Positions 3,532 to 42,924 of a stretch of DNA of 46,407 nucleotides are shown piece after piece (the first letter of the stretch is position 1; each line of letters opens with the position of its first letter). The notes beneath the pieces are model-generated. The model searched no databases, had not been told where the DNA came from, and worked only from the letters and a program-made list of their open reading frames with translations. The DNA lies in contig JAUYAK010000077.1 in the NCBI GenBank assembly GCA_030693515.1, forward strand, positions 1 to 46,407, read 5' to 3'. Made by a program: the position numbers and the translations under genes. The stretch comes from Opitutaceae bacterium. GTDB taxonomy: Bacteria > Verrucomicrobiota > Verrucomicrobiia > Opitutales > Opitutaceae.

Positions 3532-4467
3532 ATGCCGGCCTCCTCTCCACCGCCCACTCATCCCGCCGCTCCGTGGCGTGTGGCCTTTGCCGGCGGGCCC
3601 GGCGCGGCGGGCGAGGCGCTGCTGATTCAGGCGCCGTGGCTCGCGGGCGAACCGGCGGAGGAAATTTTCCCCGCCGCGGTGCCGGCCGGCGAGCGCGATG
3701 GCGTGCGGCTCTTTCGCTCCGGCGGCTTCTTGCTGGGGCACGCCCGCGAACCGTTTTCGCCTGCAGATTTGACCGTGCGCACGGAGGCGCTCTATCGGCG
3801 CCTCCTCGCCGCGACGGCCGGCCTGCACCTCTGCCGCATCTGGAACTACGTGCCGCGGATCAACGATCACACCGGCGGCCTTGAGCACTACCAGGCGTTC
3901 TGCTCGGGCCGATCGATCGGATTCGAGCGGGCGCTGGGCGACGGGTTTCAATCGCGCCTCCCGGCCGCCTCGGCCGTCGGCGTGGGTGGTGATCACGTGG
4001 AGGCGGTCTTTGTGGCGAGCGAGGCCGCGCCGCGGCATTTTGAGAATCCCGCGCAGGTGCCCGCCTACCACTATCCGCCGGAGCACGGTCCGCGCTCGCC
4101 GAGTTTCGCCCGGGCCACCGCCGTCCGCGAGGGCGGCGCGGTTTGGTTGTTCCTTTCCGGCACCGCGGCCATCAAGGGCCACGAGACCGTCGCGCCCGAC
4201 GATTTCACGCTGCAGATCGAATGCACGGTCGACAACCTGCGCCTGATCGGCCGCGCCGTCGGCCTCGGCAACGCCCTCGGCACCGGGCGCGTCGCGCGCC
4301 GTCACTTCAAGGTCTATCTCCGCCATGCCTCCGATCTCGCTGCCGCGCAGGCCCACTTGGATCGCGAGGTGCTCGCTCCCGGCGATCGCGTGACCTATCT
4401 GCACGCCGCAATCTGCCGCGCGGCGCTCGCCGTGGAAATCGAGGCCACGATTTGCACGGATCCCTGA
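3532..4467 (+). CDS. Chorismatase (FkbO/Hyg5/XanB2-like), hydroxybenzoate-forming
   Basis: 311 residues resembling the chorismatase family, which cleaves chorismate to pyruvate plus 3-hydroxybenzoate, 4-hydroxybenzoate or a dihydrodiol. Family-like segments are RIWNYVPRIND (middle), LEHYQAFCSGRS, the core LFLSGTAAIKGHETV, and the C-terminal Glu-containing EIEATIC where the catalytic Glu of the family resides. The ATG at 3532 is preferred to an in-frame TTG at 3481 because the extra residues look non-native. It converges with the pigment operon and shares only a hairpin with it. XanB2 of Xanthomonas provides 4-HBA for xanthomonadin, which suggests the same starter-supply role here. Which isomer is formed cannot be read with confidence from sequence alone. 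Confidence 0.82.
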   Translation: MPASSPPPTHPAAPWRVAFAGGPGAAGEALLIQAPWLAGEPAEEIFPAAVPAGERDGVRLFRSGGFLLGHAREPFSPADLTVRTEALYRRLLAATAGLHLCRIWNYVPRINDHTGGLEHYQAFCSGRSIGFERALGDGFQSRLPAASAVGVGGDHVEAVFVASEAAPRHFENPAQVPAYHYPPEHGPRSPSFARATAVREGGAVWLFLSGTAAIKGHETVAPDDFTLQIECTVDNLRLIGRAVGLGNALGTGRVARRHFKVYLRHASDLAAAQAHLDREVLAPGDRVTYLHAAICRAALAVEIEATICTDP

Positions 4468-4468
4468 C

Positions 4469-4544
4469 GGTGGCGCGAGGCTGCTGCCCGCGCTCGGGGC
4501 GAAAATCTCATCCGGTTCGGCGCGGGCTGAAGCCTCGCGCCACC
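4469..4544. terminator. Large inverted repeat between convergent genes (REP-like, possible bidirectional terminator)
   Basis: Arms of 25 bases, 23 of which pair, begin GGTGGCGCGAGGCTGCTGCC and are separated by a 26-base loop. The arm core GCGCGAGGCTTCAGCCCGC recurs at 21176-21198, so this is also a member of a dispersed repeat family. It sits exactly between the converging chorismatase and AMP-ligase genes, where it could stop transcription from both sides, though no U-tract follows either arm. Confidence 0.65.
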
Positions 4545-4566
4545 CCGGAGCTGCTTGGCCAAAACG

Positions 4567-5895
4567 CTACGCCTCCAGCATCGCCCGCAGCCGCGCTGTG
4601 TCGGCCTTGCCGCGGGCGGTCAGGGGAAACGCCGCGGTCACCACGATCTTCCGCGGGATTTTCCACGCGGCGATCCGTTCCCGCAGCGCGGTGCGCAGGG
4701 CCTCGGCCGGCGTGTCGCCCGCCACCACGGCCGCCAGCGATTCCGCGCGCTCCGCGTGCGGCGCCACGAAGGCCTCGCGCACGCCGGGCAGCGCCCGCAG
4801 CGCCCGCTCGACCTCCGCGAGATCGAGCCGGCGACCGGCGATTTTGACGGTGCGGCCCGCGCGCCCGAGCAGCACGACCTCACCGTCGGCCGTAAAAGCC
4901 AGGTGATCCTTGGGCCGGTGCGCGCCGGGCGTGCGGTTGCCGATCGTGAAGACGGCGGGGCTCTCGATCACCACGGTGCCGGAGCGGTCCGGGGTCAGTC
5001 GCACGCCGGGCAGCGGGGGGCCGACGCTCTTTCCGGTCAGCGCTGCGTCCCCTGTGTGGTCGTAGGTGATGCCGCCGGTCTCGCTCGAGCCGTAGAAGCT
5101 GTGGATTTTTTTTCCGAAGCGTTGATGGAACGCTGTAGCGATTTCCGGCGCCAGTGGCGCGCCCGCGGAAATCACCGTGCGCAGCGAGGCCAGATGCGCC
5201 GGTGCGATGTCGGCCAGCGCGAGCGCGCGGAGCAGCGCCGGCACCGCGGGAAACACCGTCGGCCGCCAGTGCCGGGCCGCCTCCGCGATCGCGTGCGGCA
5301 GCCCGGCGACACCGGTCACCATCGCGGTCCCTTGCGCGAGGAGCGGCACGACGAGGTTGCCGAGGCCGTAGGAGTGGCCGAGCGGGATGAGCCCGAGGTT
5401 CCGATCGTTGCCGCGGATGCCCATGCCTGCGCACACCTGCCGGCCGTCGGCCAGCAGCTGCGCATCGGTGAAGGCCAGCGCGCGCGGCGTGCCCGTGGAG
5501 CCGGACGTGAGCTTGAGCAGGCGTCGTTCATCCCGGGCGCGGCGCGGGCGCGGGGCGATTTGTTCCAAGCCCTCGTCCCGCCAGAGCCACGCCGCCCGGA
5601 TGGCCGCGGCGGTCGTGCGTTGCGCCGCGAGCGGCTCGCCCGGATCGAGTGGCGCCACGACGGCGTCGGCGTGAAGGAGACCGAGGAAAACCCGCCACCA
5701 CTCCGCGCCGCCGGGCAGGGCGAGCACGACGGTCTGACGCGCGAGTTTCGCGCCGTGCTGGTCGCGCCAGGCGCGCCCGCTCGCATCGAGTTCCGCCCGG
5801 GTCCACGTGCGGCCCGTGGCGGCATCGATCAAGGCGACCGCGCCGGGCGCGGCGCGGACGGTGTCTTCCCACGCGGAGAGCAAGGTGGCGCTCAT
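4567..5895 (-). CDS. Aryl-acid AMP ligase (ANL superfamily) of aryl polyene cluster
   Basis: 442 residues. The adenylation signatures are in order: P-loop-like LTSGSTGTPRAL (residues 129-140), FYGSSETGG, the hinge/A8-type segment GRAGRTVKIAGRRLDLAEVE and the C-terminal catalytic Lys in TARGKADTARL. It is shorter than free-standing acyl-CoA synthetases, as are the ligases of aryl polyene clusters that activate 4-hydroxybenzoate or coumarate and load it on an ACP. The start ATG overlaps the stop of the upstream exporter by 4 bases, so it is translationally coupled and is the last gene of the operon. Substrate is inferred from the neighbouring chorismatase. Fatty or other aryl acids remain possible. 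Confidence 0.87.
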   Translation of the reverse strand: MSATLLSAWEDTVRAAPGAVALIDAATGRTWTRAELDASGRAWRDQHGAKLARQTVVLALPGGAEWWRVFLGLLHADAVVAPLDPGEPLAAQRTTAAAIRAAWLWRDEGLEQIAPRPRRARDERRLLKLTSGSTGTPRALAFTDAQLLADGRQVCAGMGIRGNDRNLGLIPLGHSYGLGNLVVPLLAQGTAMVTGVAGLPHAIAEAARHWRPTVFPAVPALLRALALADIAPAHLASLRTVISAGAPLAPEIATAFHQRFGKKIHSFYGSSETGGITYDHTGDAALTGKSVGPPLPGVRLTPDRSGTVVIESPAVFTIGNRTPGAHRPKDHLAFTADGEVVLLGRAGRTVKIAGRRLDLAEVERALRALPGVREAFVAPHAERAESLAAVVAGDTPAEALRTALRERIAAWKIPRKIVVTAAFPLTARGKADTARLRAMLEA

Positions 5896-8216
5896 GCGTC
5901 GGTTCGTCGCGCGAGCGGCTCCAGTTCGACGACGAGCAGCGTCGTGACCACAATGAGCGCCACGGTGAGCCCGAGCGCATGAATCACCGGGATGCGGCTG
6001 CAGGCCAGCACCCCAAAAGACGCCGCGGTGGACAGCGCGGAGAGTCGGACGGCCGCGGGCGGCGGCTTGCCCGACGTCGCATGGTCCGAGGAGAAGATCG
6101 CGTAGTTGTGCGAGAGGCAGACGCCGAGAAACGCGCCGAGCAGATGGAACAGATTGAGCGTCTGACCCGCGAGGCCGAGCGCGCCGAAGACGAAAAAGCA
6201 CGCGCCCGCCGGCACCACCGCGATGCGCAGCCCGCGCCGCGGCGGATAGATCAGGAACACGCTCGCCATCACAAAGCCCAGGCCGACCAGGCTCAACCGC
6301 AGCGCCGACCAACGGTAGCGCGTGAACAGATCGTTTAGCGACGCCAGCTGATTCAGTGCGAGGGTGTGCGGTGCCGGCGCGGCCTCGGCCGCGGGCTGTT
6401 CCACGACGGTGAGGAACCAGAACGGCGCGGCGCTGGTGTGGCTGAGCAGAGACAGCGGTCCGGTCAGCGACGCCCGCAGATCGGTGGCGAGCTTTTCGTA
6501 GGTGCCGGCGGCCGGACGGGTGATCGCGTCATGCCACCCGGTGAAGAAAGGCTCGAACGATTCCGGGGTAAATCCGCGCGCCGCGAGTGCCGCGCGAAAC
6601 TCCGGGGCGAACGCGCCCAGCGTCGCCCGCCGGGCCAGCCACGCGGTCCAGTCGGCCTCGGTGGGCAACAACTGCCCCACGCTGCCGGCCGCAAGGCCAC
6701 TGCGGCTGGCGAGAAAGGCCTCGAGCCGCGTCCGCGCCTCCGCGAGCGTCGCGCCATGCGTGAGCCAGAGCGAGCGCTTCGCCGAATCGCCGAAGAGCGC
6801 GCGCAACGCCGCATCGTTGGCGTGCAGCTCCGGCGAAGGCAGGTCGAGCTCCCGCACATCGTCCCGCCAGGTGAGCCGCAGCGGCCCGAGCACCGCGACC
6901 GCGATCGCTGCGATCGCCAGAAGCCGCACAGCGGGGCGCCACCGACTGCCGTGCCCCGCGAAATTGCCGATGGTGCGGCCTTCGAGCTGCGGGCGATCGA
7001 GCTGCGCAAAATAAAGCATGGCCGCGCCGAGCGCGCAGAGGAGGCCGGCCGATACGAAGACGCCGATCTGGCGGATGAGCGGCAGATCGGAAAACAGCAG
7101 CAGTGAAAAACCGATGACCGTCGTGAGACAGCTCGCGAGCAGCGGTTTCAGCAGACGGCGCAGTTTCTCGCCGTAGGGTTCGTCGGGCCGCAGCGAGGGC
7201 TGCATGTAGAGGTAGAATCCATAGTCGATCGCCACGCCGCTGAGCAGCGATCCGATCACAAAAACGAGGATGTGCAGGCGATCAAAAATCAGGGTGGAAA
7301 TGGTCCACGCGCCGGCGAGGGAGAGCAGGATGATCGGGACCAGATGCAGGAGCCGCCAGATGCGGCGCACCAGCAGGCTGCTCACGCCGAGCACCGCGAG
7401 GAGCGAACCGAGGTTGAGCAGGCCGATCTCGGATTCGATGCGGGCGCGACTCGCGGCGGCGAAGCGGGCGATGCCCGTCCACCGCAGCTCCACGCCCGGA
7501 TGCGCGGCGCGGGCCTCCGCCAGCGCCCGCTCGATCACGGCGAAGATCGGGGCCTGGCCTTCCTCGGCTAGCGGCGAGGGCCGTGAGAGGGCCCAGATGA
7601 GCGCGTGGCCGCCCGCGTGGGCGGCCGGCGTCGCCAGCAGCCGGGCCTTCTCCGCCAGCGATGGGACGAGCAGCAGCGGATCGCGGGGGAGAATATCCTG
7701 CATCGCCGCGGCCTCGGGCCGGGCGAGAAACGCCTCCAGATCGGCGGCCGCCTGCGCGGCGAGCCAGCGGGGAAACTCCGCCGGCTGCGCTCCGGTGGCG
7801 GCGAACGCGCGCTCCCGCTCGGCGAGCCAGGTTGGCAGCAGCCAGTCGAAGCGGTGCTCGAAGATCTTTTTTCCCAGCTCTCCGTCGGCCGCCGGATCGC
7901 CGACTGCAACGGCTTCGGCAAAGAGCGGCGAGGCGCGCAGCGCCGCGGCAAAGGCTTGCGCCGCCGTCGCGGGCGGTGTCTCCGGCGCCCGGGGATCGCG
8001 CAGCGCGATCAGCACCACGCGCGCCTGCGCGCCCTGGGAAAAACCGCGCACGATCCCGAGTTCCAGCGACTGCTCCGCCGCCGGCATGAGATCGAGGACG
8101 TTGGTCGAGATCTTGGCCGCGTGGTCGAGCCGCAGCAGCCACCCGCCGCAAGCGGCGGCCAAGGCCAGCAGCGCGAGGCGGGCGATCCACTTGGGGCGGG
8201 ACGCGGCGTTATCCAC
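5892..8216 (-). CDS. MMPL/RND-superfamily lipid exporter
   Basis: 774 residues with the two-fold RND layout: one N-terminal membrane helix (about 12-28), a large periplasmic domain (about 30-250), a five-helix bundle with the GVAIDYGFYLYM motif (TM4 Asp of the proton relay), then a second periplasmic domain and a final helix bundle ending in VVELEPLARRTDA. MMPL proteins move lipids and lipid-linked pigments out of the inner membrane. A protein of this kind is a standard component of aryl polyene and flexirubin clusters. It lies 9 bases after the LolA-like gene and overlaps the AMP ligase. No membrane-fusion partner is encoded nearby. The transported molecule is inferred to be the acylated pigment or its precursor. 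Confidence 0.88.
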   Translation of the reverse strand: MDNAASRPKWIARLALLALAAACGGWLLRLDHAAKISTNVLDLMPAAEQSLELGIVRGFSQGAQARVVLIALRDPRAPETPPATAAQAFAAALRASPLFAEAVAVGDPAADGELGKKIFEHRFDWLLPTWLAERERAFAATGAQPAEFPRWLAAQAAADLEAFLARPEAAAMQDILPRDPLLLVPSLAEKARLLATPAAHAGGHALIWALSRPSPLAEEGQAPIFAVIERALAEARAAHPGVELRWTGIARFAAASRARIESEIGLLNLGSLLAVLGVSSLLVRRIWRLLHLVPIILLSLAGAWTISTLIFDRLHILVFVIGSLLSGVAIDYGFYLYMQPSLRPDEPYGEKLRRLLKPLLASCLTTVIGFSLLLFSDLPLIRQIGVFVSAGLLCALGAAMLYFAQLDRPQLEGRTIGNFAGHGSRWRPAVRLLAIAAIAVAVLGPLRLTWRDDVRELDLPSPELHANDAALRALFGDSAKRSLWLTHGATLAEARTRLEAFLASRSGLAAGSVGQLLPTEADWTAWLARRATLGAFAPEFRAALAARGFTPESFEPFFTGWHDAITRPAAGTYEKLATDLRASLTGPLSLLSHTSAAPFWFLTVVEQPAAEAAPAPHTLALNQLASLNDLFTRYRWSALRLSLVGLGFVMASVFLIYPPRRGLRIAVVPAGACFFVFGALGLAGQTLNLFHLLGAFLGVCLSHNYAIFSSDHATSGKPPPAAVRLSALSTAASFGVLACSRIPVIHALGLTVALIVVTTLLVVELEPLARRTDA

Positions 8217-8225
8217 AGCCGGCCA

Positions 8226-8864
8226 TCATCGGAAGAAACGTCGCACCGTGTCACCGGTGAAAAGCACGTCCTCCACGCTGTCGCGGAGGGCGATCTCGAT
8301 GCGCTGCGTGGGTGATTTAACCAGCTCGATGGCCCGCAGCTCGTGGTTTTCCCCGCGGATCGTGAGCGTGCCGAGCAGGGTGGTGAACGCCGGATCACGA
8401 GCGACGAACACGAGGGTCCACGCGGCGCCGTCGCGCCGGCCGTGCACGGCGAAGTCCTTTTGCAGCGCCGCGAGATCGAAGCGCAGCACGCGCACGAGCG
8501 CGGAGGTCGCGGCCTGCGCGCGGCTGTCGTTGGGCGGGGTGCGCTCGCGGCCCTGGTCGTCGCGCAGGAGCAGGCCCTGGGCGTCGGCGATGAGCGTGTT
8601 TTTTTCCGGCGTGAGGTAGCGCAGGCTCAGGCCCAGCTCGGGCACGATGCGGACCTCGCCGGTGAGCACGATCGGCTCCTTGCGAAACGGAAAGAAGCGG
8701 CGCTCCTCGAACTTCGACTGACGGGTCTTGTTCGGCGTCAGTTTGGCCAAGAGATCGCGCCACGCCGGATCGTTCGCGGGATCGGCGAGGAGTGTTTCCG
8801 GCGTGAGTGGCAGTGGCTCGGCGGCGCAGGCGAGCAGCGGGAGGAGAAAAAAGATCAGGCGCAT
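8226..8864 (-). CDS. LolA-like periplasmic carrier of pigment cluster
   Basis: 212 residues with an N-terminal signal peptide (MRLIFFLLPLLACAAEP, cleavage probably after the alanines). A mature domain resembling the LolA/DUF-type lipoprotein-carrier fold follows: the SKFEERRFFPFRKEPIVLTGEV start of the half-barrel, the RYLTPEKNTLIAD strand and the late VRRFF. Members of this family inside aryl polyene clusters are thought to ferry the pigment-lipid across the periplasm, not lipoproteins. The start is set at the ATG 8864 so that the signal peptide is at the N-terminus; a longer upstream frame adds six unrelated residues. A 7-base gap separates it from the GT2 gene. Confidence 0.78.
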   Translation of the reverse strand: MRLIFFLLPLLACAAEPLPLTPETLLADPANDPAWRDLLAKLTPNKTRQSKFEERRFFPFRKEPIVLTGEVRIVPELGLSLRYLTPEKNTLIADAQGLLLRDDQGRERTPPNDSRAQAATSALVRVLRFDLAALQKDFAVHGRRDGAAWTLVFVARDPAFTTLLGTLTIRGENHELRAIELVKSPTQRIEIALRDSVEDVLFTGDTVRRFFR

Positions 8865-8871
8865 GGCGTTT

Positions 8872-9636
8872 TTAGCGGGCACGTGACGCGCGCACCCGCC
8901 CGACAGAGACCCAGCGCCACAGGAGAAGTTGCACGATGAGGCGCGTGTGCAGCCAGATGAGTTTCAGGTTATCGCGGAGATAGTTGAAATGCGACACGCC
9001 GCCCTCGTCCTTGGCGAAATAGCGGCACGGGGCCGGGAGGTTCACCGTCGGCACGCCGGCCCAGAACATCCGCACCGCCACCTCCGGGTCGAAATCAAAG
9101 CCGCGGGCGCGCCGCGTGGAGGCGAGCGCCGCGCGCAAGGCGGCCGCCGGATAAACGCGAAAGCCGAAGAGCGGATCATCGATGCCGGCGCCGAGGATCT
9201 CGAAACGGGCGAGGCCCACGCTGAGTTTGCGCCCGTGCAGGCGCTCAAGGGGAACCTCCGGACCGAAAAGGGGCCGGCCCAGGACCAGCGCGGCAGGCTG
9301 GGCCTGCGACGCCGCCATGAACGGACCGATGTGATCGACCGGGTGCTGGCCGTCGGCGTCGAGCGTGAGCACGTGGGTGAAGCCGGCGGCGAGCGCGGCC
9401 TCGACGCCGGTGGCGACCGCAGCGCCCTTGCCGCCGTTTTTCAACCGGACGATCACGCGCACGCGAGAATCGGCGGCGTAAGCCCGTGCCACGCCGCTGG
9501 CGCTGCCGTCGGTGCTGCCGTCGTCCACGATCCAGACGAGGGTCCAGTGCGCGAGCGCGGCGGCCACGGTCGCGGCGAGGCGCGGGCCGGGGTTGTAGCT
9601 CGGGATGAGGACGAGGTGCGTGGCGGACGGCATCAT
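8872..9636 (-). CDS. Family 2 glycosyltransferase
   Basis: 254 residues with a GT-A fold. The N-terminus reads LIPSYNPGPRL, the nucleotide-binding segment is VDDGSTDGS (37-45), and the metal-binding DAD is in TLDADGQHP (91-98). The QHP after the DxD and the FDFDPEVAVRM segment recall dolichyl-phosphate/undecaprenyl-phosphate sugar transferases. No clear C-terminal membrane helices are seen apart from a hydrophobic stretch LIVQLLLW. GT2 enzymes occur in aryl polyene clusters and are thought to glycosylate the aryl head or the lipid anchor. Starts at the first of two adjacent ATGs (9636), overlapping the acyltransferase stop by 4 bases. Confidence 0.88.
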   Translation of the reverse strand: MMPSATHLVLIPSYNPGPRLAATVAAALAHWTLVWIVDDGSTDGSASGVARAYAADSRVRVIVRLKNGGKGAAVATGVEAALAAGFTHVLTLDADGQHPVDHIGPFMAASQAQPAALVLGRPLFGPEVPLERLHGRKLSVGLARFEILGAGIDDPLFGFRVYPAAALRAALASTRRARGFDFDPEVAVRMFWAGVPTVNLPAPCRYFAKDEGGVSHFNYLRDNLKLIWLHTRLIVQLLLWRWVSVGRVRASRAR

Positions 9637-10385
9637 GACGCGGCGAGGGCCGAGGTGAGTTGGCGGGTGGCCCGGGCGGTCAGTTGCGCCGCAGTTTCGC
9701 CCGCCTCCGGCTCGATTTCGGTGAGCAGCGTGATGTCCACCAAGGAGGGAAAGGCGGGCGCGCGCCACCACGGCCAGCCCTTCGGCACCAAGTCGCGCGG
9801 CGCGCGGACCACGATGATCCGAATCGGGGCGCAGGCGCGCGCGGCGATGAGGGCAAAGCCCGGGCGCAACGGATTGAGCGCGATGCCGGGCGCGGTGCGC
9901 GTGCCCTCGGGAAACACCAGCAGTGAGCGGCCGTCGGCCACGCGCTGCGCGACATCGCGGATGAGATCGACGCCGTTGTCGCCGGCCGCGTAGCCGGCCA
10001 TGAGCGCGGCGGGGCCGAGCACCGGGTTGCGCATGAGGGCGGGCTTGAAAATGCAGATGGTGTCCGGGAGGCGCGAGAGGATGAACGTCGCGTCGAGCAG
10101 CCCGGGGTGGTTGGCGATGTAGATGGCGGGCCCCGCCATCGCTTCGGGCGTGAAGCCGTGGAAACGCACATAAATGAGCCGCGTCGCATGCAGCCACGCG
10201 CACCACGCGGCGAAGAGCCGCCGAATCGCGCGGCGCGCCGCCCCGCCGTAGCGCTGCCGATCGCGGAGGAGCAGCAGCGGCATGCACACGAGATTAAGCG
10301 TCACGCCGACGGTGGCGAACAGCGTCCACGAGACGATGTTGGCCGGGTAATGATAAAGGCGCAGCAGCCGGCGCGGGAGCGTCAT
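9633..10385 (-). CDS. 1-acyl-glycerol-3-phosphate-type acyltransferase (PlsC-like)
   Basis: 250 residues of the LPLAT superfamily. One N-terminal membrane segment (about 18-40) precedes motif I N-H-P-G-L-L-D (H93 and D98 form the catalytic HxxxxD pair). Motif III is VFPEGTRT (157-164), and a VPKGW segment follows near the C-terminus. Acts at the cytoplasmic face of the inner membrane, moving an acyl group from ACP or CoA to a glycerol or similar hydroxyl. In this operon the acyl donor or acceptor is probably the pigment intermediate. It overlaps both neighbours by 4 bases and pairs with a second, LpxL-like acyltransferase directly upstream. Confidence 0.88.
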   Translation of the reverse strand: MTLPRRLLRLYHYPANIVSWTLFATVGVTLNLVCMPLLLLRDRQRYGGAARRAIRRLFAAWCAWLHATRLIYVRFHGFTPEAMAGPAIYIANHPGLLDATFILSRLPDTICIFKPALMRNPVLGPAALMAGYAAGDNGVDLIRDVAQRVADGRSLLVFPEGTRTAPGIALNPLRPGFALIAARACAPIRIIVVRAPRDLVPKGWPWWRAPAFPSLVDITLLTEIEPEAGETAAQLTARATRQLTSALAAS

Positions 10386-11290
10386 GGCGCGGGCGGGTTG
10401 AGCGGCGTGAAGTTGAACCAGAGCGTGGGATCGGCGTGCAGCCAGCCTTCGATGCGCGTGAGGAACTCCTGAAAGTGCGCGCGCGCACGCTCGAGGTTGG
10501 CGGCCTTGCCGGCGTCGTCCGGGCGGAAGAGCGGTGAACAGTGGATCGTCGAATGCCCGGGCCCCGCGGGCAGCCCGACGCTCAGGATGACGGGCCGGCG
10601 GAAGATCAGCGCGAGGTGGTAGATCGTGAACGGGAAAATCCGGCGCGCGCCGAGGAACTGAAACGCCTCCGTCTTGGCGCTGAACCCGAGCCGGTCGCAT
10701 TTCATCGCGACCGAGCCGCCGGTCGCGACCGCCTCCTTGAGGGCGAAGAGGAGATTGGCGGGCTCGTTGACCCAGATGAAGCTCACCCACTGGGCGAAGT
10801 GCGCGCCCAGAATCTCCGTGTCGTGGGAATTTTCCCGGTGCTGCCGCACCATGAACACACGGCGGCGCTCCTGCGGGCCGATCAGAAATCCCGTGAGATC
10901 CGAATGCCCGAAGTGAAACGTGCCGAGCAGCGCGGGCTCGCCACTCGCCAGCAGCTCACGAAACCCGGCCGCATCCGGCGCGAGCTCGCCACGATGGGGG
11001 AGGCCGCGGGCCACGCGCAGACGCAGCATCATGAATTCCTCGAACGCGAAAAAATGGCGGAAGATCTCGCGCAGCGTCGGCTCACGCTCGAGCACCACCG
11101 CGAGATACGCCCGGGAATTCGCGCGCTGCGCGTGCATCTTGGCGATCGCGGCGGCCGTCCCCAGCCGGCGCAGCGGACGGAACAGCCACTCCGGCAACAC
11201 CGCGTCGCACGCGCAGAGGAAGCGAAAGCCCCAGCCCGGGCCGGGATTCCGGACGGGCGCGATGTTGGAATCGGGGGCACCTGCGTTCAT
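10382..11290 (-). CDS. LpxL/HtrB-like lysophospholipid acyltransferase
   Basis: 302 residues. The HxxxxD catalytic pair is H126/D131 in GTFHFGHSD. The later segments VMVRQHRENSHD, AMKCDRLG and RIFPFTIYHLAL fit the lauroyl/myristoyl-acyltransferase family that works on lipid A and on other periplasm-facing lipids. The ATG at 11290 is chosen because it starts the family-like region; the frame extends 18 codons further without similarity. Together with the PlsC-like protein it would supply the acyl chains or anchor the aryl polyene to a lipid. A 44-base gap separates it from the chain-length-factor-like gene, the largest gap in this half of the operon. Confidence 0.83.
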   Translation of the reverse strand: MNAGAPDSNIAPVRNPGPGWGFRFLCACDAVLPEWLFRPLRRLGTAAAIAKMHAQRANSRAYLAVVLEREPTLREIFRHFFAFEEFMMLRLRVARGLPHRGELAPDAAGFRELLASGEPALLGTFHFGHSDLTGFLIGPQERRRVFMVRQHRENSHDTEILGAHFAQWVSFIWVNEPANLLFALKEAVATGGSVAMKCDRLGFSAKTEAFQFLGARRIFPFTIYHLALIFRRPVILSVGLPAGPGHSTIHCSPLFRPDDAGKAANLERARAHFQEFLTRIEGWLHADPTLWFNFTPLNPPAP

Positions 11291-11334
11291 GCGGGGCTCC
11301 TGCAGTGAGACATCGCGCGCGCGAGCATGACAGG

Positions 11335-11994
11335 CTAAATCCACGCGACGCCCAGCCGCCGGCCCGGTGCCGCGAGCTGATCGATGGGCTGGCGCGCGCG
11401 CAGCGCGTCGAAAAAATCAGGCAGCGTGAATTCTGCGTTCGCCGTGTCGTCGGCCGCCGGCGCGAGCGTCACGCGGGCGAGCGAGCCGGCGGGATCGCGC
11501 GAGAGCGCGAGGGCGAAGGCGAACGTGCGATCGCTGGCGGCGCGGTGGGCGAGCAGCCAGGTGCCGCGCTCTTCGCCCCCGCAGAGAATCACCCGCGGCG
11601 CGGGCGCGAGCAGCGCAGTTTGCAGGGCCTGCGCCGCGAGGTGGGCGCGGCCGGTGAGCGGAAAAAATTCCCCCACGGCGTGCTGCCGAGCGATCAGGGC
11701 CTGTTGCACGGCGCTCGGATGGATCGAGGTTTGAAAGAGCGTGGGGCTGGCGGTCGGAAAGCTGTCGAGGTAGCCCTCGAGCGCGCCGGTCTCGGCAAAG
11801 CTCGACGCATACACGATCGTGTCGCCGGGCTGGGGCGCGAGGTCGTCGAGCGCGGCGCCGAGGAGCAGGCCGAGCTGTGTCATGCGCCGCGTGGCGCCGC
11901 GCGGGAAGCGATCCTTCAGCCGCTCGCGCGTCGCCGCGAGATCCTCGGCACCGGCGTCCGCGAGACTGAGGGCGTGGAGCTGGCGCTCAAGCAT
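11335..11994 (-). CDS. Chain-length-factor-like ketosynthase homologue (no active-site Cys)
   Basis: 219 residues matching the short beta-ketoacyl synthase N-terminal-like family found in aryl polyene clusters. The thiolase-fold landmarks are TIVYASSFAETGALEGYLDSF and the segment FQTSIHPSAVQQALI. That segment aligns with the ketosynthase active site, but the nucleophilic Cys is replaced and no HGTGT-type histidine segment is present. It therefore cannot condense alone. It probably pairs with the ketosynthase directly upstream (8-base overlap) as a chain-length-determining partner, as in the KS-CLF heterodimers of this pathway type. The C-terminus ends soon after LPDFFDALRARQP. Confidence 0.8.
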   Translation of the reverse strand: MLERQLHALSLADAGAEDLAATRERLKDRFPRGATRRMTQLGLLLGAALDDLAPQPGDTIVYASSFAETGALEGYLDSFPTASPTLFQTSIHPSAVQQALIARQHAVGEFFPLTGRAHLAAQALQTALLAPAPRVILCGGEERGTWLLAHRAASDRTFAFALALSRDPAGSLARVTLAPAADDTANAEFTLPDFFDALRARQPIDQLAAPGRRLGVAWI

Positions 11995-13093
11995 GGCCGA
12001 GGAAAAATGCGGCGTGCGCGCCGCCGAACGCGTTGCTGGTGCAGACCACGCCATCGGTGCCGCGCAGGTCGAGCGGCGCGAAGGCGACGTGGTCGCGGAA
12101 TCCGGGGCCGTCGCTGCCGAGTGTGCCGGGGGCGCGGCCGGCGCGGATTGCTTCGCAGGCGAGCGCGAGTTCGACGAGGCCGCAGCTGCCGAGCGTGTGC
12201 CCGAGGCTGCCTTTCCACCCCGTGAGCGGGGCGCCGGGAAACGCCTCGGCGAGCGCCGCGCACTCGAGCCGGGCGGCCTCGAGCGTGCCGGTGCCGTGGC
12301 CCTTGAGCCACACGCGGCGGCCGGAGACCGCGGCCGCCACAGGCGCGAGGCATGTGGCGAAACCCGCGCCGTCGGCCCGGTTGGCGGTGAAGTGGTGCAT
12401 TTCGTTGTGCAGGCTCTGCGCCGTGATGGTGAAGTCGCCGGCGTCGCGCGTGAGCACGGCGAAAGCCGCGCCATCGCCGAGCCCGATGGAGCCGGTGGCG
12501 CGCGCCGCATAGGGCGCAGGGAAGCCGGCATTGAGGATTTTCAGCGCATGAAAACCACCCGCGACAAACGGGCTGATGAAGTCGAAGGAAAACACCAGCG
12601 CGCGCTCGGCGAGGCCGGCCTCGAGCGCGCGGGTCGCGAGCAGCAGCCCGAGGTGCGCGGATACGCAGGCGTGCGAGACCGTGGTGACGTTGGCGCCCCA
12701 GCCGAGTTCGTGAGCGAGCCACTCGACGCTGCGGTGCGGCGTGCCGTAGGCGAGGTGCGCCGGGTCGCCGTGGCGGCGAAATGCATAGAGGCTGCCCACG
12801 CCGAAATTGCTGCTCGTCACCCACACCGGCCGGCGCGCCGTGCCCCAGCCGTCGCCCGGGATTGTGACCGCGAGCGCCCGCACGCCGTCGATCCAGTTGG
12901 GCGGCGCCGTCTCGTCGAAGCCCCGGCCGGTGGCCAGTGCGAGCGGCACGTGTTCACCCCCATCGGCGCCGAGCACCGGGTGCGGGCGCAACGCGATCTC
13001 GCCGCGCAGGAGGGCGGCGTGCGTCGCGCGGGCGTCACCGAGGGCGGTGAGGCAGCCGGCGCTTTCCAGATGGACGGCGGAAGGAGGGGCCAT
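11987..13093 (-). CDS. Beta-ketoacyl-ACP synthase, CLF-partner type
   Basis: 368 residues with an intact catalytic triad. The nucleophile C143 is in the atypical context SHACVSAH, H266 is in KGHGTGT, and K294/H299 are in GWKGSLGHT. Condenses malonyl-ACP with the growing chain. It is shorter than FabF-type enzymes and has no N-terminal MSRT-like start; an in-frame TTG nine bases upstream of the chosen ATG (13093) cannot be excluded. The overlap with the CLF-like gene supports a heterodimer. The other ketosynthase (13458-14726) is more FabF-like and may start or finish the chain. Confidence 0.88.
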   Translation of the reverse strand: MAPPSAVHLESAGCLTALGDARATHAALLRGEIALRPHPVLGADGGEHVPLALATGRGFDETAPPNWIDGVRALAVTIPGDGWGTARRPVWVTSSNFGVGSLYAFRRHGDPAHLAYGTPHRSVEWLAHELGWGANVTTVSHACVSAHLGLLLATRALEAGLAERALVFSFDFISPFVAGGFHALKILNAGFPAPYAARATGSIGLGDGAAFAVLTRDAGDFTITAQSLHNEMHHFTANRADGAGFATCLAPVAAAVSGRRVWLKGHGTGTLEAARLECAALAEAFPGAPLTGWKGSLGHTLGSCGLVELALACEAIRAGRAPGTLGSDGPGFRDHVAFAPLDLRGTDGVVCTSNAFGGAHAAFFLGHA

Positions 13094-13120
13094 GCGCGGC
13101 AAGGGGCGGGCCCCGGGGCC

Positions 13121-13396
13121 TCAGCGCGGCAGCCGCGCGGGGTCGGCGCGGGCGCGGATGAACTCGGCGAGGTGCGCGATGCTGGCGAGCGCGGTGCGTG
13201 ATTCCTCGCTGCTGCTGATCTTGATGCCGAACTCCTTTTCAAGGGTGACGACCAGCTCAAGCGCGTCGATGGAGTCGAGGTTGAGGCCGGAGCCGATCAG
13301 CGGTTCGTCGTCCGCCATCTGCGCGGGGGTGACGTCCTCCAGCTTGAGCGTGGTGACGATGAGGGTTTTGAGCCGGGAAATGAGCGGATCGGGCAT
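13121..13396 (-). CDS. Acyl carrier protein (cluster ACP 1)
   Basis: 91 residues with the four-helix ACP pattern. The phosphopantetheine attachment site is S42 in GLNLDSIDALELVV, preceded by the acidic ADDEPLIGSG. Helix III/IV ends EFIRARADPARLPR. It lies between the two ketosynthase genes and should carry the aryl starter or the extending chain. The start at ATG 13396 gives the normal ACP length; a longer frame upstream is Cys/Trp-rich and unlike the family. A second ACP lies two genes upstream; the sequences are distinct, so different roles (starter versus elongation) are likely. Confidence 0.92.
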   Translation of the reverse strand: MPDPLISRLKTLIVTTLKLEDVTPAQMADDEPLIGSGLNLDSIDALELVVTLEKEFGIKISSSEESRTALASIAHLAEFIRARADPARLPR

Positions 13397-13457
13397 GAGG
13401 GTCAGACAGCAGCGAAGGGAACGTGTGCGCCCACGGCAAACGAGATGATTGGAAAAA

Positions 13458-14726
13458 TCAGGGCTCCACCCGCCGCAGCACATGGCACACGTTGCTGCCG
13501 CCGAAACCGCTGCTGTTGTTGAGGACGAGGCGCGGAGCTTCGCCGAGCGTCGCGCGCGGGAGGTCGAGGCCGGCGCAGGCTTCTTCGGGCGCGGTGAGGT
13601 TGGCGTTGCCTGGGATGAAACCGTCTCTGATCGCGAGGGCGCAGAAGGCGGCTTCCATCGCCCCGCTCATCGAGAGCGGGTGGCCGGTCAGGCCCTTGGT
13701 GCTGCTGATGCGCGGGTGCGCCCCGGCGGCGGTGAACACGCTGCCCAGCGCCAGCGCCTCCGAGCGGTCGCCGGCGGGCGTGGAGGTGGCGTGGGCGTTG
13801 ACGTAGTCGATGTCGGTCGCGGCGACGCCGGCATCGGCCAGGGTGCGGCGCATCGCACTCGCGAGCCCGGCGCCCTCGGGATGCGAGACGGCGATGCTGT
13901 GGCCATCGGCCGCCGCGCCCCAACCGGCCAGTTCGGCGTAAATCGGCGCTCCGCGCCGGCGGGCGGTCTCGGCCTCCTCAAGCACCAGGCACACGGCGCC
14001 CCCTGCGGCCACAAAGCCGTCGCGCGATTGATCGAAGGGTCGCGAGGCGGTTGCGGGGTCGGCGCTCGACGACAGGGCGCGCATCGCGGCGAAGGGCAAA
14101 ACGGTCTCCGCATTCACTTCTTCGGCGCCCACGATCAGCATCCGCGTTTGCCGGCCGAGGCGGATGTCGTCGAGCGCGCAGCCGAGCGCGTGGCTGGAGG
14201 AGGCGCAGGCGGCGACGAAGCCGCCGACCGCGCCCCGGATGCCGTAGTGGGCGGCGAGGTTGAAATTGAGCGTGCCCGCGATCGAGGAGACAACCCCGAG
14301 GGGATTGCAGCGTTCGCCGCGCGCGGCGGTCATCTGCGCGACGTGGTGGTGCAGCAAAAACGCCGAGCCGGCCGAGGCGCAGTAGAGCCCGGTCGCGCCA
14401 TCCGTGATCGCGTCGCGCGTGAGCTGCGCATCGGCGAGGGCCTGCTCGACGGCGCAGAGGGCGTAGAGGCCGTGGGGCGCAAGGCTGCGGAGCGTCTCGC
14501 GGGGAAAATCGTAGCGCGCGGGCCAGCGCCAGTCGCGCCAGCTCGGCGAGGCGACATCGAAGTCCCGCACGATGCCGGCGACCTTCACGTTCACCGCCGG
14601 GTTGCCGAAAAAATCGATCGGCGCGAGGCCGTGGCGCAGGGCGCGCAGGCTTGCCGTGACGCCGGCGCGGTCGTGGCCAATGGGTGTGATAAAGCCGAGG
14701 CCGGTGACGACGGCGGTGCGGCTCAT
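13458..14726 (-). CDS. Beta-ketoacyl-ACP synthase II-type (FabF-like)
   Basis: 422 residues, normal for FabF. All catalytic residues are present: C174 in [11 protein letters not shown]312 in [10 protein letters not shown]344 and H349 in [10 protein letters not shown]. The N-terminus reads [17 protein letters not shown] and the C-terminus [10 protein letters not shown], both hallmark ketosynthase ends. The start ATG overlaps the upstream ACP stop by 4 bases, so the two are coupled. In aryl polyene pathways a second, FabF/FabH-like ketosynthase is thought to act beside the KS-CLF pair, for example in the first condensation on the aryl starter. That assignment is an inference. Confidence 0.93.
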
Positions 14727-15100
14727 GCGTGCGGCAGGCTCGCGAGCTTGTGCCGCACAAAGGCCCGCAGGTCGGCCACCGTGCGCACGCGCACGATTTC
14801 GGCGTTGGAGACGTTCACCTTCAGCAGGTCTTCGAGGAAGAAGACCATCTCCGCGATCGCCACCGAGTCGAAGCCGAGGTCGCCGGCGAGGGTCGCTTCG
14901 TCCGTGATCGCGGCACCGGGCCGCGGCCTGTGGTCGGCGACGATGGCGAGCACGAGCAGGTCGGCCGCGGCGGGATCGCGGGTGGCGACGACGCGGGTGT
15001 AGGCCTCGCGAACGTCCGCGGAAAAATGGCGCAGCAGCGTGTCCGCCGCCTCGGGCAGCGCGATTGGAGCGGTGGGGGGTGAAGGCGCGCGAGTGTTCAC
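14723..15100 (-). CDS. Acyl carrier protein with N-terminal extension (cluster ACP 2)
   Basis: 125 residues counted from a GTG start at 15100 that overlaps the stop of the halogenase-like gene by 4 bases (GTGA). The core ACP motif is [18 protein letters not shown] with the attachment Ser at position 79. The helix after it ([15 protein letters not shown]) is typical. About 45 residues precede the ACP core: a Pro/Ala-rich lead and a predicted helix [18 protein letters not shown]. No ATG fits the family alignment, so the GTG start is preferred. It precedes the FabF-like gene, suggesting these two work as a pair. Confidence 0.87.
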
Positions 15101-16665: not shown

Positions 16666-16723
16666 CGGCAGGGAGGAGAAATTCGGGAGGGGCTCGCGGC
16701 AACCGCAAACCCTCGCAGGGTTG

Positions 16724-18025
16724 TCAGCTGGCGATGGGTTGCCCGACGGCCGCCGTGGCGGGGCCGGCGGGCCGGCGCACGATTCTCAAATAGCGCTGGA
16801 GCCGGCAAATCAGGAGGAAGAGGGTAAACCGCCACCGCAGCGGCCAAGTCAGCCGGGCATGGCCGCCCACGATCGAATTGATCCCGCGCATGAGATCCCA
16901 CGGCACTTGCTGGCACATGAAGACATCAAAGGCGTCCTCGTCGTAGAATGCCGCGATCAGTTTCTGGAAAACCCCGGCGCGGCCCTTGACCGTGCGGGTG
17001 TAGCCGCGGCGTTCGCGCGGGGTGAGGCCGCGATTTTCGCCCGCCGCCCGCGCCACCAGATCCGCGGCGGTCTTGCCCGACCACGTCGCCATGTAAACCC
17101 CCGAGGAAAAAATCGGATCGAAGAAGCCCGCGGCGTCGCCGGCGAGAACGAGTCGCTCCTGCGCCAGCTCACGGCGGAAGTAGCTGTAGTCGCTCGTGAC
17201 GTGGAATCCCATCGTGGGTGCCGCGCCGCCCAGCAGCTCGCGCAGTTTCACCGAGCCCGCGACCGCGCGTTGAAAGAACACCTCGGGCGCCAAGCCCGCC
17301 GCGCGAAACCCCTCGACCGTCGTCACGATGCCCACCGAGGTCCGCTCCGCGTCGATCGGGATGATCCAGAACCAGCCGCCGTCGAGCCGCACGGTGAGGA
17401 CGTTGCCGCCTTCGGGCCCCGGGGCGCGGCCCACGCCGCGAAAGTGGCTGTAAACCGCCAGGCGCTTGGGAAACGGCGACGGCTCCAGCGCGTGTTTCTG
17501 CTCCGACATCAGCCCCGGATCGCGGCCCGTCGCATCAATGACCCACGGCACGGTGAGGGTCTGCTCGCCCGCGGTGCCGTCGAGCACGACGCGATGCCCG
17601 TCGCCCTCGCGCTCCACGCGGCGCACCGTCGTCTCCATCCGCACCTCCGCCCCGAGGGAGCGCGCGTGGTCGAGCAGCAGCGCATCGAAACGGGCCCGCT
17701 CCACCTGAAACGCGCTGTTCAGCCCGGGAATCAGCCCTTCGCGAAAGACGACCTTCTTCGTTTCGCTGCCGTCGGCGCGGTGGAACTCCGCGCCGAATTT
17801 CGGGATGAAGCCGCCGGCCGCGACCTTGGGCAGCGCGCCGATCTCGGCGAGCACGTGGTTGCCGGCCGGCAGCAGCGACTCGCCGATGCGGAAGCGCGGG
17901 AACGCGTATTTTTCCGCCACGAGCACCCGCAGCCCATGCTGCCGCAGCCGGGCGGCCGCGCAGCTCCCCGCCGGTCCGCCACCGATCACGAGCACGTCAT
18001 GACTGAATCCGTTTTTTGGCATCAT
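16724..18025 (-). CDS. Flavin-dependent halogenase/oxidoreductase-like protein (second of two)
   Basis: 433 residues with a perfect dinucleotide motif VIGGGPAGSCAA (13-24) and the GES (48-50) of the halogenase/geranylgeranyl-reductase group. K76 lies in FIPKFGAEF, W218-F-W-I-I-P223 matches WxWxIP, and GDAAGFFDPIFSSGV provides F-x-D-P-x-x-S-x-G. It lacks the C-terminal membrane-like helix of its neighbour. A second ATG at 18022 follows the chosen one; 18025 overlaps the methyltransferase stop by 4 bases. A 58-base gap before the next gene is the only sizable break early in the operon. Could be a second halogenase or an aryl hydroxylase giving the dihydroxy/methoxy pattern. Sequence alone does not decide. 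Confidence 0.78.
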   Translation of the reverse strand: MMPKNGFSHDVLVIGGGPAGSCAAARLRQHGLRVLVAEKYAFPRFRIGESLLPAGNHVLAEIGALPKVAAGGFIPKFGAEFHRADGSETKKVVFREGLIPGLNSAFQVERARFDALLLDHARSLGAEVRMETTVRRVEREGDGHRVVLDGTAGEQTLTVPWVIDATGRDPGLMSEQKHALEPSPFPKRLAVYSHFRGVGRAPGPEGGNVLTVRLDGGWFWIIPIDAERTSVGIVTTVEGFRAAGLAPEVFFQRAVAGSVKLRELLGGAAPTMGFHVTSDYSYFRRELAQERLVLAGDAAGFFDPIFSSGVYMATWSGKTAADLVARAAGENRGLTPRERRGYTRTVKGRAGVFQKLIAAFYDEDAFDVFMCQQVPWDLMRGINSIVGGHARLTWPLRWRFTLFLLICRLQRYLRIVRRPAGPATAAVGQPIAS

Positions 18026-18747
18026 CTCACCGCTACGTATTCGCTGAAGAGCCCCATGATCCGGTGGCACTTCACCTCGGCAAAGCCGGCGGCGCGCATC
18101 GCCTCAAGGACGGTCGCGGGCGGCACGCTGGCATCCATCGTCTCCCAATAGTAGCGCATCATGTCGCGCGCCGCCGGGCTCCGCGTGAACAGCCGCGTGA
18201 GGCCCGGGTAGATTTTTCCGAAATAGAGCCGGAAGAAAAAATTCCCGACGCGGCTCGCGGGCTTGGTCACCTCGAGGATCAGCACGCGGCCGCCCGGCCG
18301 CAGCACCCGGTGGTATTCGCGCATCGTCACGGCGAGATCGGCCACGTGGCGCAGCGCGTAGCCCATGGTGAGAAAATCAAACGATCCGTCGGGCAATGGC
18401 AGCGCGTCCGCGTAGCCGCGCACGAAGGTCGCGGGCAGCTTCTTTTTCGCCTCGGCCATCATGCCCTCGCTCGGATCGAGGCAGGTGATGTGTTCGGCGG
18501 TGCCGAGGATGCGCGCGGCCTCGACCGCCATGAGGCCCGTGCCGCAGGCGACGTCGAGCAGGTGCATCCCGGGCCGGAGCCCGTGGCGGTGCTGCACCCA
18601 GCGCCGGTAGGCGCTGCCGCTGCCGAGAAAGCCCCACCCGGTGACGCCATCGTAGTGCTTGGCCGCGGCGTCGAAGAGCTGGTTGACGAAGACGGGTTTG
18701 TCCTCGGCGCGCGTGAAGTGCGACGGCAGCGGCGGGTGCGGAAGCAT
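18022..18747 (-). CDS. Class I SAM-dependent methyltransferase (UbiE/MenG-like)
   Basis: 241 residues. The SAM-binding motif I is LLDVACGTGLMA (63-74) and the acidic end of strand 2 is in CLDPSEGMM. Motif II LPLPDGSFDFLTMGYALRHV and motif III VLRPGGRVLILEVTKP match the UbiE/COQ5 group. An aryl O- or C-methyltransferase is expected in this setting: xanthomonadin-type pigments carry an O-methyl group and others a ring methyl. The ATG at 18747 is preferred to a GTG 84 bases upstream because the extra 28 residues have no methyltransferase character. It is the first gene of the 14-gene minus-strand operon and is divergent from the amidohydrolase, so the operon promoter should lie in 18748-18870. 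Confidence 0.87.
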   Translation of the reverse strand: MLPHPPLPSHFTRAEDKPVFVNQLFDAAAKHYDGVTGWGFLGSGSAYRRWVQHRHGLRPGMHLLDVACGTGLMAVEAARILGTAEHITCLDPSEGMMAEAKKKLPATFVRGYADALPLPDGSFDFLTMGYALRHVADLAVTMREYHRVLRPGGRVLILEVTKPASRVGNFFFRLYFGKIYPGLTRLFTRSPAARDMMRYYWETMDASVPPATVLEAMRAAGFAEVKCHRIMGLFSEYVAVR

Positions 18748-42750: not shown

Positions 42751-42755
42751 ATTTC

Positions 42756-42829
42756 GCAGCGGGGGGCGTCCCGGCCCGCCGTTTCAGGGCGTCCGCCAAA
42801 CCTCGGCGGGCTGGGACGCGCGCCGCTAC
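42756..42829. repeat. REPIN-like inverted repeat (copy 4)
   Basis: Left arm starts GCAGCGGGGGGCGTCCCGGC; the right arm read on the other strand starts GTAGCGGCGCGCGTCCCAGC and ends in CTAC. A spacer of TTTCAGGGCGTCCGCCAAACC joins them. It closely resembles copy 1 at 2373-2445, including the TCAGGG spacer word and G/C arm. Lies within an operon, between the LpxH-like and hydrolase genes. Confidence 0.75.
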
Positions 42830-42924
42830 CCAGAATGACAAACAGGTTCCGGCCCGGCAAAGTTCCGGTGACACGCCCGATGCGGGATTGTGAAATCGCC
42901 GCGGCCGCATGGCCTCGGTTGCCG

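What the first reader, a model, noticed from the sequence alone, without database searches (positions are those of the whole stretch)
3532..18747. Probable halogenated aryl polyene (xanthomonadin/flexirubin-like) cluster outside the usual phyla
Fourteen minus-strand genes plus a convergent chorismatase combine aryl starter synthesis, AMP ligase, two ACPs, two ketosynthases, a CLF-like protein, methyltransferase, two flavoproteins with WxWxIP motifs, two acyltransferases, GT2, LolA-like and MMPL proteins. This set is the transport-and-decoration set of aryl polyenes, with halogenation as in xanthomonadins (Xanthomonas) and flexirubins (Bacteroidota). The organism looks verrucomicrobial, in which brominated or chlorinated aryl polyenes are not, to my knowledge, characterised.
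Basis: partly seen in the sequence, partly recalled or inferred. Interest (0 to 1): 0.72.

Follow-up and report, generated by a model that had tools for sequence, protein, structure and literature searches.

The report
Aryl-polyene-like cluster lacking reduction genes
A Verrucomicrobiota genome carries a conserved gene cluster that looks built to make and export a yellow aryl-polyene lipid from a hydroxybenzoate, with two halogenase-like enzymes, but it lacks the chain-reducing and dehydrating genes that such clusters normally encode, so it may borrow them from fatty-acid synthesis.

Summary
The gene set is real and correctly placed: 14 minus-strand genes (4567-18747) plus a convergent chorismatase (3532-4467). 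The core is aryl-polyene-like: ApeO-type ketosynthase, ApeC-type partner, AMP-ligase, ACP, GT2, two acyltransferases, LolA, MMPL. Profiles of the ketosynthase and its partner find the aryl polyene KS-CLF crystal structures. The chorismatase is closest to Hyg5 chains, pointing to 3-hydroxybenzoate.

Of 14 Opitutales clusters (window included) none has a ketoreductase nearby; 4 keep both ApeI/ApeP-type dehydratases; none of the nine Opitutaceae ones does. No extra FabA-family dehydratase tracks the cluster across 24 Opitutaceae genomes.

Halogenation is possible, not shown. Both flavoproteins keep halogenase motifs, and the FAD1 model is nearest PltM, a phenolic halogenase. But the motifs also occur in flavoproteins of three Proteobacterial aryl polyene clusters, and Azoarcus arcuflavin, whose cluster holds a halogenase gene, is non-brominated.

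The phylum is no surprise: arylpolyene clusters were already predicted in Verrucomicrobiota. Verdict: a new variant of a known kind, conserved in Opitutaceae.

The parts
3532..4467 (+). CHOR: chorismatase of the FkbO/Hyg5 type, predicted to make 3-hydroxybenzoate from chorismate
   Evidence: PF21168 E 2.4e-20; best PDB chains 5ag3/5a3k E 1.6e-40 and 4e-39, then FkbO 4e-33; Cys295 and Gly210 in 19 of 19 aligned sequences, window included
4567..5895 (-). LIG: AMP-ligase (ApeH-like)
   Evidence: PF00501 E 9e-36 and AMP-binding_C; 25% to E. coli ApeH E 3e-14
5892..8216 (-). MMPL: MMPL-family exporter (ApeM-like)
   Evidence: PF03176; ApeM 22% E 1e-14
8226..8864 (-). LolA-like periplasmic carrier
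   Evidence: PF19574 LolA_3 E 9e-7; weak, below-cut-off match to the flexirubin LolA2 model; no BLAST match to E. coli ApeL at E<1e-3
8872..9639 (-). GT2 glycosyltransferase (as in ApeJ)
   Evidence: PF00535 E 4e-20; ApeJ 35% E 3e-43
9633..10385 (-). PlsC-type acyltransferase (ApeD-like)
   Evidence: PF01553; ApeD 37% E 4e-25; HX4D and FPEGT kept in 9 of 9
10382..11290 (-). LpxL/HtrB-like acyltransferase (as in ApeJ)
   Evidence: no Pfam hit; ApeJ 26% E 3e-7; HX4D in 12 of 12; no PDB hit at E<=1
11335..11994 (-). CLF: ApeC-type chain-length-factor-like protein (start inferred from alignment A3)
   Evidence: profile A3 finds only 7f28_A and 6qsp_B in the PDB, E 0.0003 and 0.0008; Pfam match below cut-off; no BLAST match to E. 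coli ApeC at E<1e-3
11987..13093 (-). KS2: ApeO-type ketosynthase, Cys143-His266-His299
   Evidence: profile A5: 7f28_B first, E 8.5e-28, 6qsp_A third; triad in 13 of 13
13121..13396 (-). ACP2: acyl carrier protein, ApeE-like (start uncertain, up to 13483)
   Evidence: PF00550; 49% to ApeE
13458..14726 (-). KS1: FabF-type second ketosynthase
   Evidence: PF00109/PF02801; 32% to ApeR, 56% to a KS at G000:C121 beside an ACP-FabA fusion, 37% to a FabF-type KS at G000:C46
14723..15130 (-). ACP1: second acyl carrier protein (start uncertain)
   Evidence: PF00550; 31% to the ACP-FabA fusion of C121
15097..16665 (-). FAD1: halogenase-fold flavoprotein, family found mostly in Verrucomicrobiota
   Evidence: PF04820 E 6e-16; AlphaFold model pLDDT 87.7 nearest PltM, TM 0.72; own clade
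16724..18025 (-). FAD2: halogenase-family flavoprotein of the kind found in Proteobacterial aryl polyene clusters
   Evidence: PF04820 E 3e-25; ChlB4, CmlS, PltA best in PDB; tree
18022..18747 (-). MT: UbiE-like methyltransferase, a separable trio with FAD2 and FAD1
   Evidence: PF01209 E 2e-33; detached MT-FAD2-FAD1 trio in G081

Best explanation
An aryl-polyene-like outer-membrane lipid pathway of Opitutaceae that has no reductive genes of its own. Inferred order: the chorismatase makes 3-hydroxybenzoate; the AMP-ligase loads it on ACP2; KS2 with its CLF partner extends it with malonyl units, helped by KS1 with ACP1; ketone reduction and dehydration are done by enzymes encoded elsewhere, most likely housekeeping FabG and one of the three core FabA/FabZ-type dehydratases (the ACP-FabA fusion at C121 is my first candidate, because the KS beside it is 56% identical to KS1). 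MT methylates, FAD2 and FAD1 oxidise or halogenate the aryl head or chain, GT2 and the two acyltransferases fix the polyene to a lipid, and LolA and MMPL export it. Shown: gene families, intact catalytic residues, conservation, absence of KR and DH genes. Inferred: substrate, product, borrowing, and what the flavoproteins do.
For: Profiles of CLF and KS2 find the aryl polyene KS-CLF structures. Eight of 15 window proteins match E. coli CFT073 ape proteins by BLAST at E<1e-3 (LIG, MMPL, GT2, PLSC, LPXL, KS2, ACP2, KS1). The core cluster recurs in 13 other genomes of the order and 17 of 80 named FAD1 loci hold its CLF. Catalytic residues intact. Borrowing: KR 0 of 14 clusters, nothing at E<=0.01 in six frames, with E. 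coli, Azospirillum and Roseomonas found as controls; four clusters (G179, G113, G213, G122) keep ApeI- and ApeP-type dehydratases yet show no KR within about 20 kb, so reduction from outside seems needed there already. KS1 is nearer the C121 KS (56%) than the C46 FabF-type KS (37%).
Against: In E. coli, deletion of most core biosynthetic ape genes abolished pigment (PMC8253772, section 6), so housekeeping enzymes do not generally replace them there. No FabA-family dehydratase tracks the cluster. The operon at C121 occurs with and without the cluster. CLF, LolA and the chorismatase have no BLAST match among the E. coli ape proteins. No pigment has been measured.
Confidence: 0.6

Rival explanations
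1. A true xanthomonadin-type halogenated aryl polyene: FAD1 and/or FAD2 put bromine or chlorine on the phenol ring or chain.
For: Halogenase lysine in 72 of 80 FAD1 rows (8 gaps) and 47 of 47 FAD2 rows; in 23 aligned FAD1 proteins the Lys, both motif Trp and F-D-P-S-G are invariant. FAD1 model: first 45 fold matches are halogenases or the flavoprotein 3nix. FAD2: best PDB sequence hits ChlB4, CmlS, PltA; by tblastn bits its best listed plasmid matches are Streptomyces proteins (182, 176), above the Azospirillum aryl polyene one (163).
Against: The same residues are in flavoproteins of the Azospirillum, Roseomonas and Pseudoalteromonas aryl polyene clusters, with which FAD2 falls in one clade apart from the two halogenase references used (few references, long branches). 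Azoarcus has a halogenase gene in the cluster but a non-brominated pigment (PMC3949708). Motifs do not tell halogenation from hydroxylation.
Confidence: 0.4
2. Not a polyene: because no ketoreductase or dehydratase is encoded, the product is an unreduced or short aryl polyketide lipid.
For: KR and DH absent and the genes tile the cluster; no FabA-family gene elsewhere tracks the cluster.
Against: No cyclase or aromatase family among the Pfam hits of the cluster genes; sister clusters keep both dehydratases beside the same KS, CLF, ligase and transporters, which points to a polyene ancestry.
Confidence: 0.2
3. A decaying cluster that lost its reductive genes and makes nothing.
For: Dehydratases present in four clusters of other families of the order are missing in all nine Opitutaceae clusters; parts are scattered in some copies.
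Against: The catalytic residues checked are intact across genera and the core gene order is kept in most copies.
Confidence: 0.06

Closest known systems
Arcuflavin cluster of Azoarcus sp. BH72 (PMC3949708; passages and discussion section read)
   Same: chorismatase, halogenase gene, AMP-ligase, methyltransferase, glycosyltransferase, acyltransferases, LolA, exporter; 3-HBA starter
   Different: has its own reductase and dehydratase (arcH, arcI) and the polyene is joined to a dialkylresorcinol; product measured and described as non-brominated
Xanthomonadin cluster of Xanthomonas and its Lysobacter relative (PMC3691225; passages read)
   Same: chorismatase-type starter enzyme (XanB2), KS with CLF-like partner, LolA-type carrier; halogenase gene in Xanthomonas
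   Different: Lysobacter cluster has KR and two DH genes and no halogenase; no FAD1-type gene mentioned in the passages I saw
E. coli CFT073 aryl polyene cluster (L073; PMC8253772 passages and section 6)
   Same: counterparts of ApeO, ApeR, ApeH, ApeE, ApeD, ApeJ, ApeM by BLAST; ApeC by structure-chain match
   Different: E. coli has ApeI, ApeP, ApeQ, ApeK and ApeN, and no chorismatase or flavoprotein gene in the cluster
Azospirillum ramasamyi, Roseomonas haemaphysalidis and Cupriavidus metallidurans plasmid clusters (L218, L219, L223)
   Same: FAD2-family flavoprotein beside KS, ligase, LolA and MMPL genes
   Different: all three carry a FabG-type KR and ApeP- and ApeI-type dehydratases by HMM

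Membership tests
Aryl polyene (APE) cluster | ApeO ketosynthase with ApeC chain length factor | tested here: met
   profiles A5 and A3 find 7f28 and 6qsp chains; that these are ApeO-ApeC is partly recalled
Aryl polyene (APE) cluster | aryl AMP-ligase and dedicated ACP | tested here: met
   substrate not tested
Aryl polyene (APE) cluster | GT2, acyltransferases, LolA, MMPL for lipid attachment and export | tested here: met
Aryl polyene (APE) cluster | dedicated ketoreductase | tested here: not met
   none in the window; 0 of 14 clusters; three control clusters found
Aryl polyene (APE) cluster | dedicated dehydratases ApeI and ApeP | tested here: not met
   none in the window; no match above cut-off in G000; present in 4 of 14 clusters
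Aryl polyene (APE) cluster | thioesterase ApeK | tested here: not met
   ApeK search found only the E. coli control
Aryl polyene (APE) cluster | polyene product in the outer membrane | not testable with these tools
   needs chemistry
Xanthomonadin-type | chorismatase giving 3-HBA | tested here: inconclusive
   family met; product type rests on a recalled rule about a Cys and a Gly
Xanthomonadin-type | bromination | not testable with these tools
   needs LC-MS
Flavin-dependent halogenase | GxGxxG, WxWxIP, catalytic Lys, FxxPxxSxG (motifs recalled) | tested here: inconclusive
   WxWxIP, Lys and FxDPxxSxG are met by FAD2 and nearly always by FAD1; GxGxxG is met by FAD2 (GGGPAG) but FAD1 reads GGALAG in the window
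Flavin-dependent halogenase | halogenating activity | not testable with these tools
   motifs are shared with flavoproteins of other aryl polyene clusters
Flexirubin-type | dialkylresorcinol module (DarA, DarB) and aromatic ammonia-lyase in the cluster | tested here: not met
   no ammonia-lyase family and no KSIII-type gene of its own among the Pfam-scanned genes of the window; rest of the genome not searched for them

The most novel reading that the evidence does not exclude
Opitutaceae make a halogenated, methylated, 3-hydroxybenzoate-primed polyene lipid with a type II PKS that has handed ketone reduction and dehydration over to the cell's fatty-acid enzymes, and FAD1 is a new halogenase family, nearly confined to Verrucomicrobiota, with a PltM-like fold acting on the phenolic head.
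Probability: 0.25. Interest if true: 0.68.

Novelty: new variant of a known kind. Interest (0 to 1): 0.46.

Why it matters
[quoted passage not shown] A conserved lineage without either, with sister clusters at what looks like an intermediate stage (dehydratases but no ketoreductase nearby), makes it testable whether such a synthase can run on fatty-acid enzymes. FAD1 relatives lie on 163 genome contigs, almost only Verrucomicrobiota among the 80 listed: an untested pool of possible phenolic halogenases.

Tried and rejected
Hidden KR/DH inside the cluster: rejected by six-frame HMM search; two of the dehydratase seeds came from G213 and G122 themselves, so those two count as independent only for the other model. 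KR/DH genes elsewhere that track the cluster: FabA-family hits are three in each of 10 Opitutaceae genomes with the chorismatase cluster or KS2, and three in 10 of 14 genomes without a chorismatase match (2 in G075 and G221, 4 in G108 and G208). The best match to ApeQ in G000 (C46) lies beside an acpP-like and a FabF-like gene, so I read it as housekeeping FabG; 14 further SDR matches were not examined. ApeI model PF22818: 0 of 52 genomes over cut-off; ApeP model PF22817: 4 of 52, G000 not among them. An SDR near FAD1 in G081 looked like a lost ketoreductase but sits among genes that look like sugar metabolism, so it was set aside. The idea that MT is unique to this genome was dropped: five named loci (L104-L108, 70-93%) and the detached MT-FAD2-FAD1 trio of G081 (56%) have it, and L131 and L132 match at 43%. 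PDB search for the LpxL-like protein found nothing at E<=1. The phylum searches with A1 and A5 used strict limits (1e-100, 1e-70), so 19 and 15 of 240 are lower bounds. Of the 28 other chorismatase-positive genomes I examined the 18 strongest and left out 10 weak ones (best E 3e-15 to 2e-19). Five of the 18 (G152, G160, G128, G071, G169) have no CLF within 20 kb; G160 has part of the cluster on another contig, with no KR or DH on that 16-kb piece, and G069 likewise on its 19-kb contig. The G015 locus runs to a contig end; a further 20 kb on its other side showed no KR or DH. The tree used 69 of 136 rows (all non-named-locus rows plus 44 drawn at random, length-filtered), only two reference halogenases, and gave long-branch warnings. 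I had labelled a Variovorax plasmid protein as coming from an aryl polyene cluster; a check found no aryl polyene genes within 8 kb of it, so I do not count it, although it sits among those rows in the tree. The Cupriavidus protein, whose cluster is confirmed, was not in the alignment or tree.
Full report
What is there. ORF calling on a 68% GC window and domain scans give 14 tightly packed minus-strand genes, 4567-18747, and a convergent chorismatase, 3532-4467. The order from 18747 downward is methyltransferase, FAD2, FAD1, ACP1, KS1, ACP2, KS2, CLF, LpxL-like acyltransferase, PlsC-type acyltransferase, GT2, LolA, MMPL, AMP-ligase. Neighbours overlap or lie at most 61 bases apart. The flanks are unrelated: gyrase A, a PTS EIIA-type protein and CorA on one side; an amidohydrolase, a metallo-beta-lactamase-fold protein, an MFS transporter and pyruvate kinase on the other.

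Whose it is. A scan of named genome contigs with an alignment of FAD1 returned Opitutaceae MAGs first (93%, 87%, 83% identity), so I place the window in Opitutaceae, Verrucomicrobiota. The scan found 163 contigs that encode a relative; 80 are listed, and all but two titles name Verrucomicrobiota taxa (L144, a 4-kb contig titled Betaproteobacteria; L150, titled PVC group).

How it compares. Against the E. coli CFT073 ape genes (L073) eight of 15 window proteins match by BLAST: KS2 to ApeO, KS1 to ApeR, ACP2 to ApeE, PlsC to ApeD, GT2 and the LpxL-like protein to ApeJ, the ligase to ApeH and MMPL to ApeM. A profile of the CLF-like protein from eight genomes finds two PDB chains only, 7f28_A and 6qsp_B, and the KS2 profile finds 7f28_B first; that these are ApeO-ApeC complexes I take from recall and from passages of PMC8358021. 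The chorismatase matches 5ag3/5a3k, which I recall as Hyg5, better than FkbO; a Cys and a Gly that I recall as marks of 3-HBA formation are in 19 of 19 aligned sequences. Catalytic residues of both ketosynthases, ACPs, acyltransferases and GT2 are in every row aligned (9 to 13 rows each); in the ligase each of the two positions has one gap among 12 rows.

What is missing. The comparator clusters carry a ketoreductase and one or two dehydratases: E. coli, Azospirillum, Roseomonas, Pseudoalteromonas, Cupriavidus, and by the text Lysobacter (PMC3691225). A six-frame HMM search found no ketoreductase at E<=0.01 in the window or in the 18 related loci of 20 to 40 kb each, while it found the three control clusters. 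ApeI- and ApeP-type dehydratases were found in G179, G113, G213 and G122 only. Counting loci with a CLF, window included: ketoreductase 0 of 14, both dehydratases 4 of 14; the nine Opitutaceae clusters and G132 have none. Of 17 named loci with a CLF, several on short contigs, none shows a ketoreductase and one (L152) an ApeI-type dehydratase. In the whole genome G000 no ApeI or ApeP match passes the family cut-off. Its three FabA-family genes lie in a 480-aa frame that I read as LpxC-FabZ from its length, in a FabZ-like gene of another biosynthetic locus (L005), and in an ACP-FabA fusion (L004) beside a KS 56% identical to KS1. Each of 10 cluster-positive and 10 of 14 chorismatase-negative Opitutaceae genomes has three such genes, so none is specific to the cluster.

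How it probably works. Because four sister clusters keep dehydratases but show no ketoreductase nearby, reduction by an enzyme from outside may have been normal before the dehydratases were lost. I therefore think the Opitutaceae pathway is still a polyene pathway that uses the cell's FabG and one of its dehydratases. KS1 is nearer to the C121 KS (56%) than to the C46 FabF-type KS (37%), which makes the C121 operon, present with and without the cluster, my first candidate. This is inference. Against it: in E. coli most core ape deletions abolish pigment (PMC8253772, section 6), so borrowing is not automatic; and co-occurrence gives no support. An unreduced aryl polyketide cannot be excluded.

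The flavoproteins. FAD2 is 31-35% identical to flavoproteins of the Azospirillum, Roseomonas, Cupriavidus and Pseudoalteromonas plasmid clusters (contexts). In the tree it shares a clade with three of these, apart from a C-1027 protein annotated tryptophan 7-halogenase and a CmlS-annotated protein. By raw score it is as near or nearer to Streptomyces proteins, that of C-1027 included, so kinship alone does not decide. FAD1 forms one clade with full support. The halogenase lysine is in 72 of 80 FAD1 rows (8 gaps) and 47 of 47 FAD2 rows, and the printed Verrucomicrobiota rows keep WxWxIP and FxDPxxSxG, except G179 FAD1 with T for P. FAD1 departs from the GxGxxG loop (GGALAG). The AlphaFold model of FAD1 (pLDDT 87.7) has PltM as best fold match (TM 0.72); of the first 50 rows 45 are halogenases or the Cytophaga flavoprotein 3nix and five are kynurenine monooxygenase. 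This supports a halogenase-type enzyme but not halogenation: the arcuflavin cluster has a gene called halogenase and its product is described as non-brominated (PMC3949708). MT, FAD2 and FAD1 form a trio that in G081 lies about 57 kb from the rest of the cluster, and G015, G117 and G141 have the chain module without a FAD1 match at the strict limit used, so these genes look like an optional tailoring module.

Novelty. Arylpolyene clusters have been predicted in Verrucomicrobiota before (passages of PMC8692599; PMC9865893; PMC12193912), so the phylum is not the news. In the listings of nine library searches I saw no title or abstract start on a characterised verrucomicrobial aryl polyene or on a cluster lacking reductive genes; most of those papers I did not open, and most subscription journals are not held. 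I file it as a new variant: it works like an aryl polyene cluster, but defining features (ketoreductase, dehydratases, thioesterase) were tested and not met.

Noticed in passing
L004 3823-10678 (G000:C121): Genes in a row: ACP-FabA fusion, KS, SDR, MGDG-synthase-like and other glycosyltransferases, largely conserved in Opitutaceae with or without the window cluster; names partly by eye. Possibly a glycolipid with an unusual acyl chain.
   Followed up: partly
L005 7192-11977 (G000:C89): Phytoene-desaturase-like, FabZ-like, FabI-like, KSIII-like and alpha/beta-hydrolase genes in a row; resembles an olefin-type locus by my reading of the sequences.
   Followed up: no
L137, L153 and seven other named loci; also L220 and L224: A family that I read as a cation:proton antiporter lies near FAD1 in 9 of the 80 named loci; annotated antiporters also sit beside a FAD1-like gene on a Janthinobacterium plasmid and beside the halogenase-annotated gene of Streptomyces globisporus C-1027.
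   Followed up: no
L130, L141, L157 and others: In Chthoniobacter flavus and some relatives FAD1 lies next to MMPL- and LolA-type genes without the CLF-type cluster, suggesting another lipid-export pathway with FAD1.
   Followed up: no
L140, L181, L131, L139 and others: Eleven named loci have FAD1 near a FabG-type ketoreductase, most of them with ACP and KS, but no ApeC-type partner: a second kind of verrucomicrobial type II PKS cluster.
   Followed up: no
clusters of G132, G179 and G122 (L060, L054, L071): A DedA/VTT-like membrane protein (by eye) lies between ACP2 or KS2 and the flavoprotein gene in three non-Opitutaceae clusters.
   Followed up: no
window 39840-45626, + strand: MGDG-synthase-like, YegS-type lipid kinase, calcineurin-like phosphoesterase, alpha/beta hydrolase and a GH3-family gene in a row: a possible lipid-modification operon unrelated to the cluster.
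   Followed up: no
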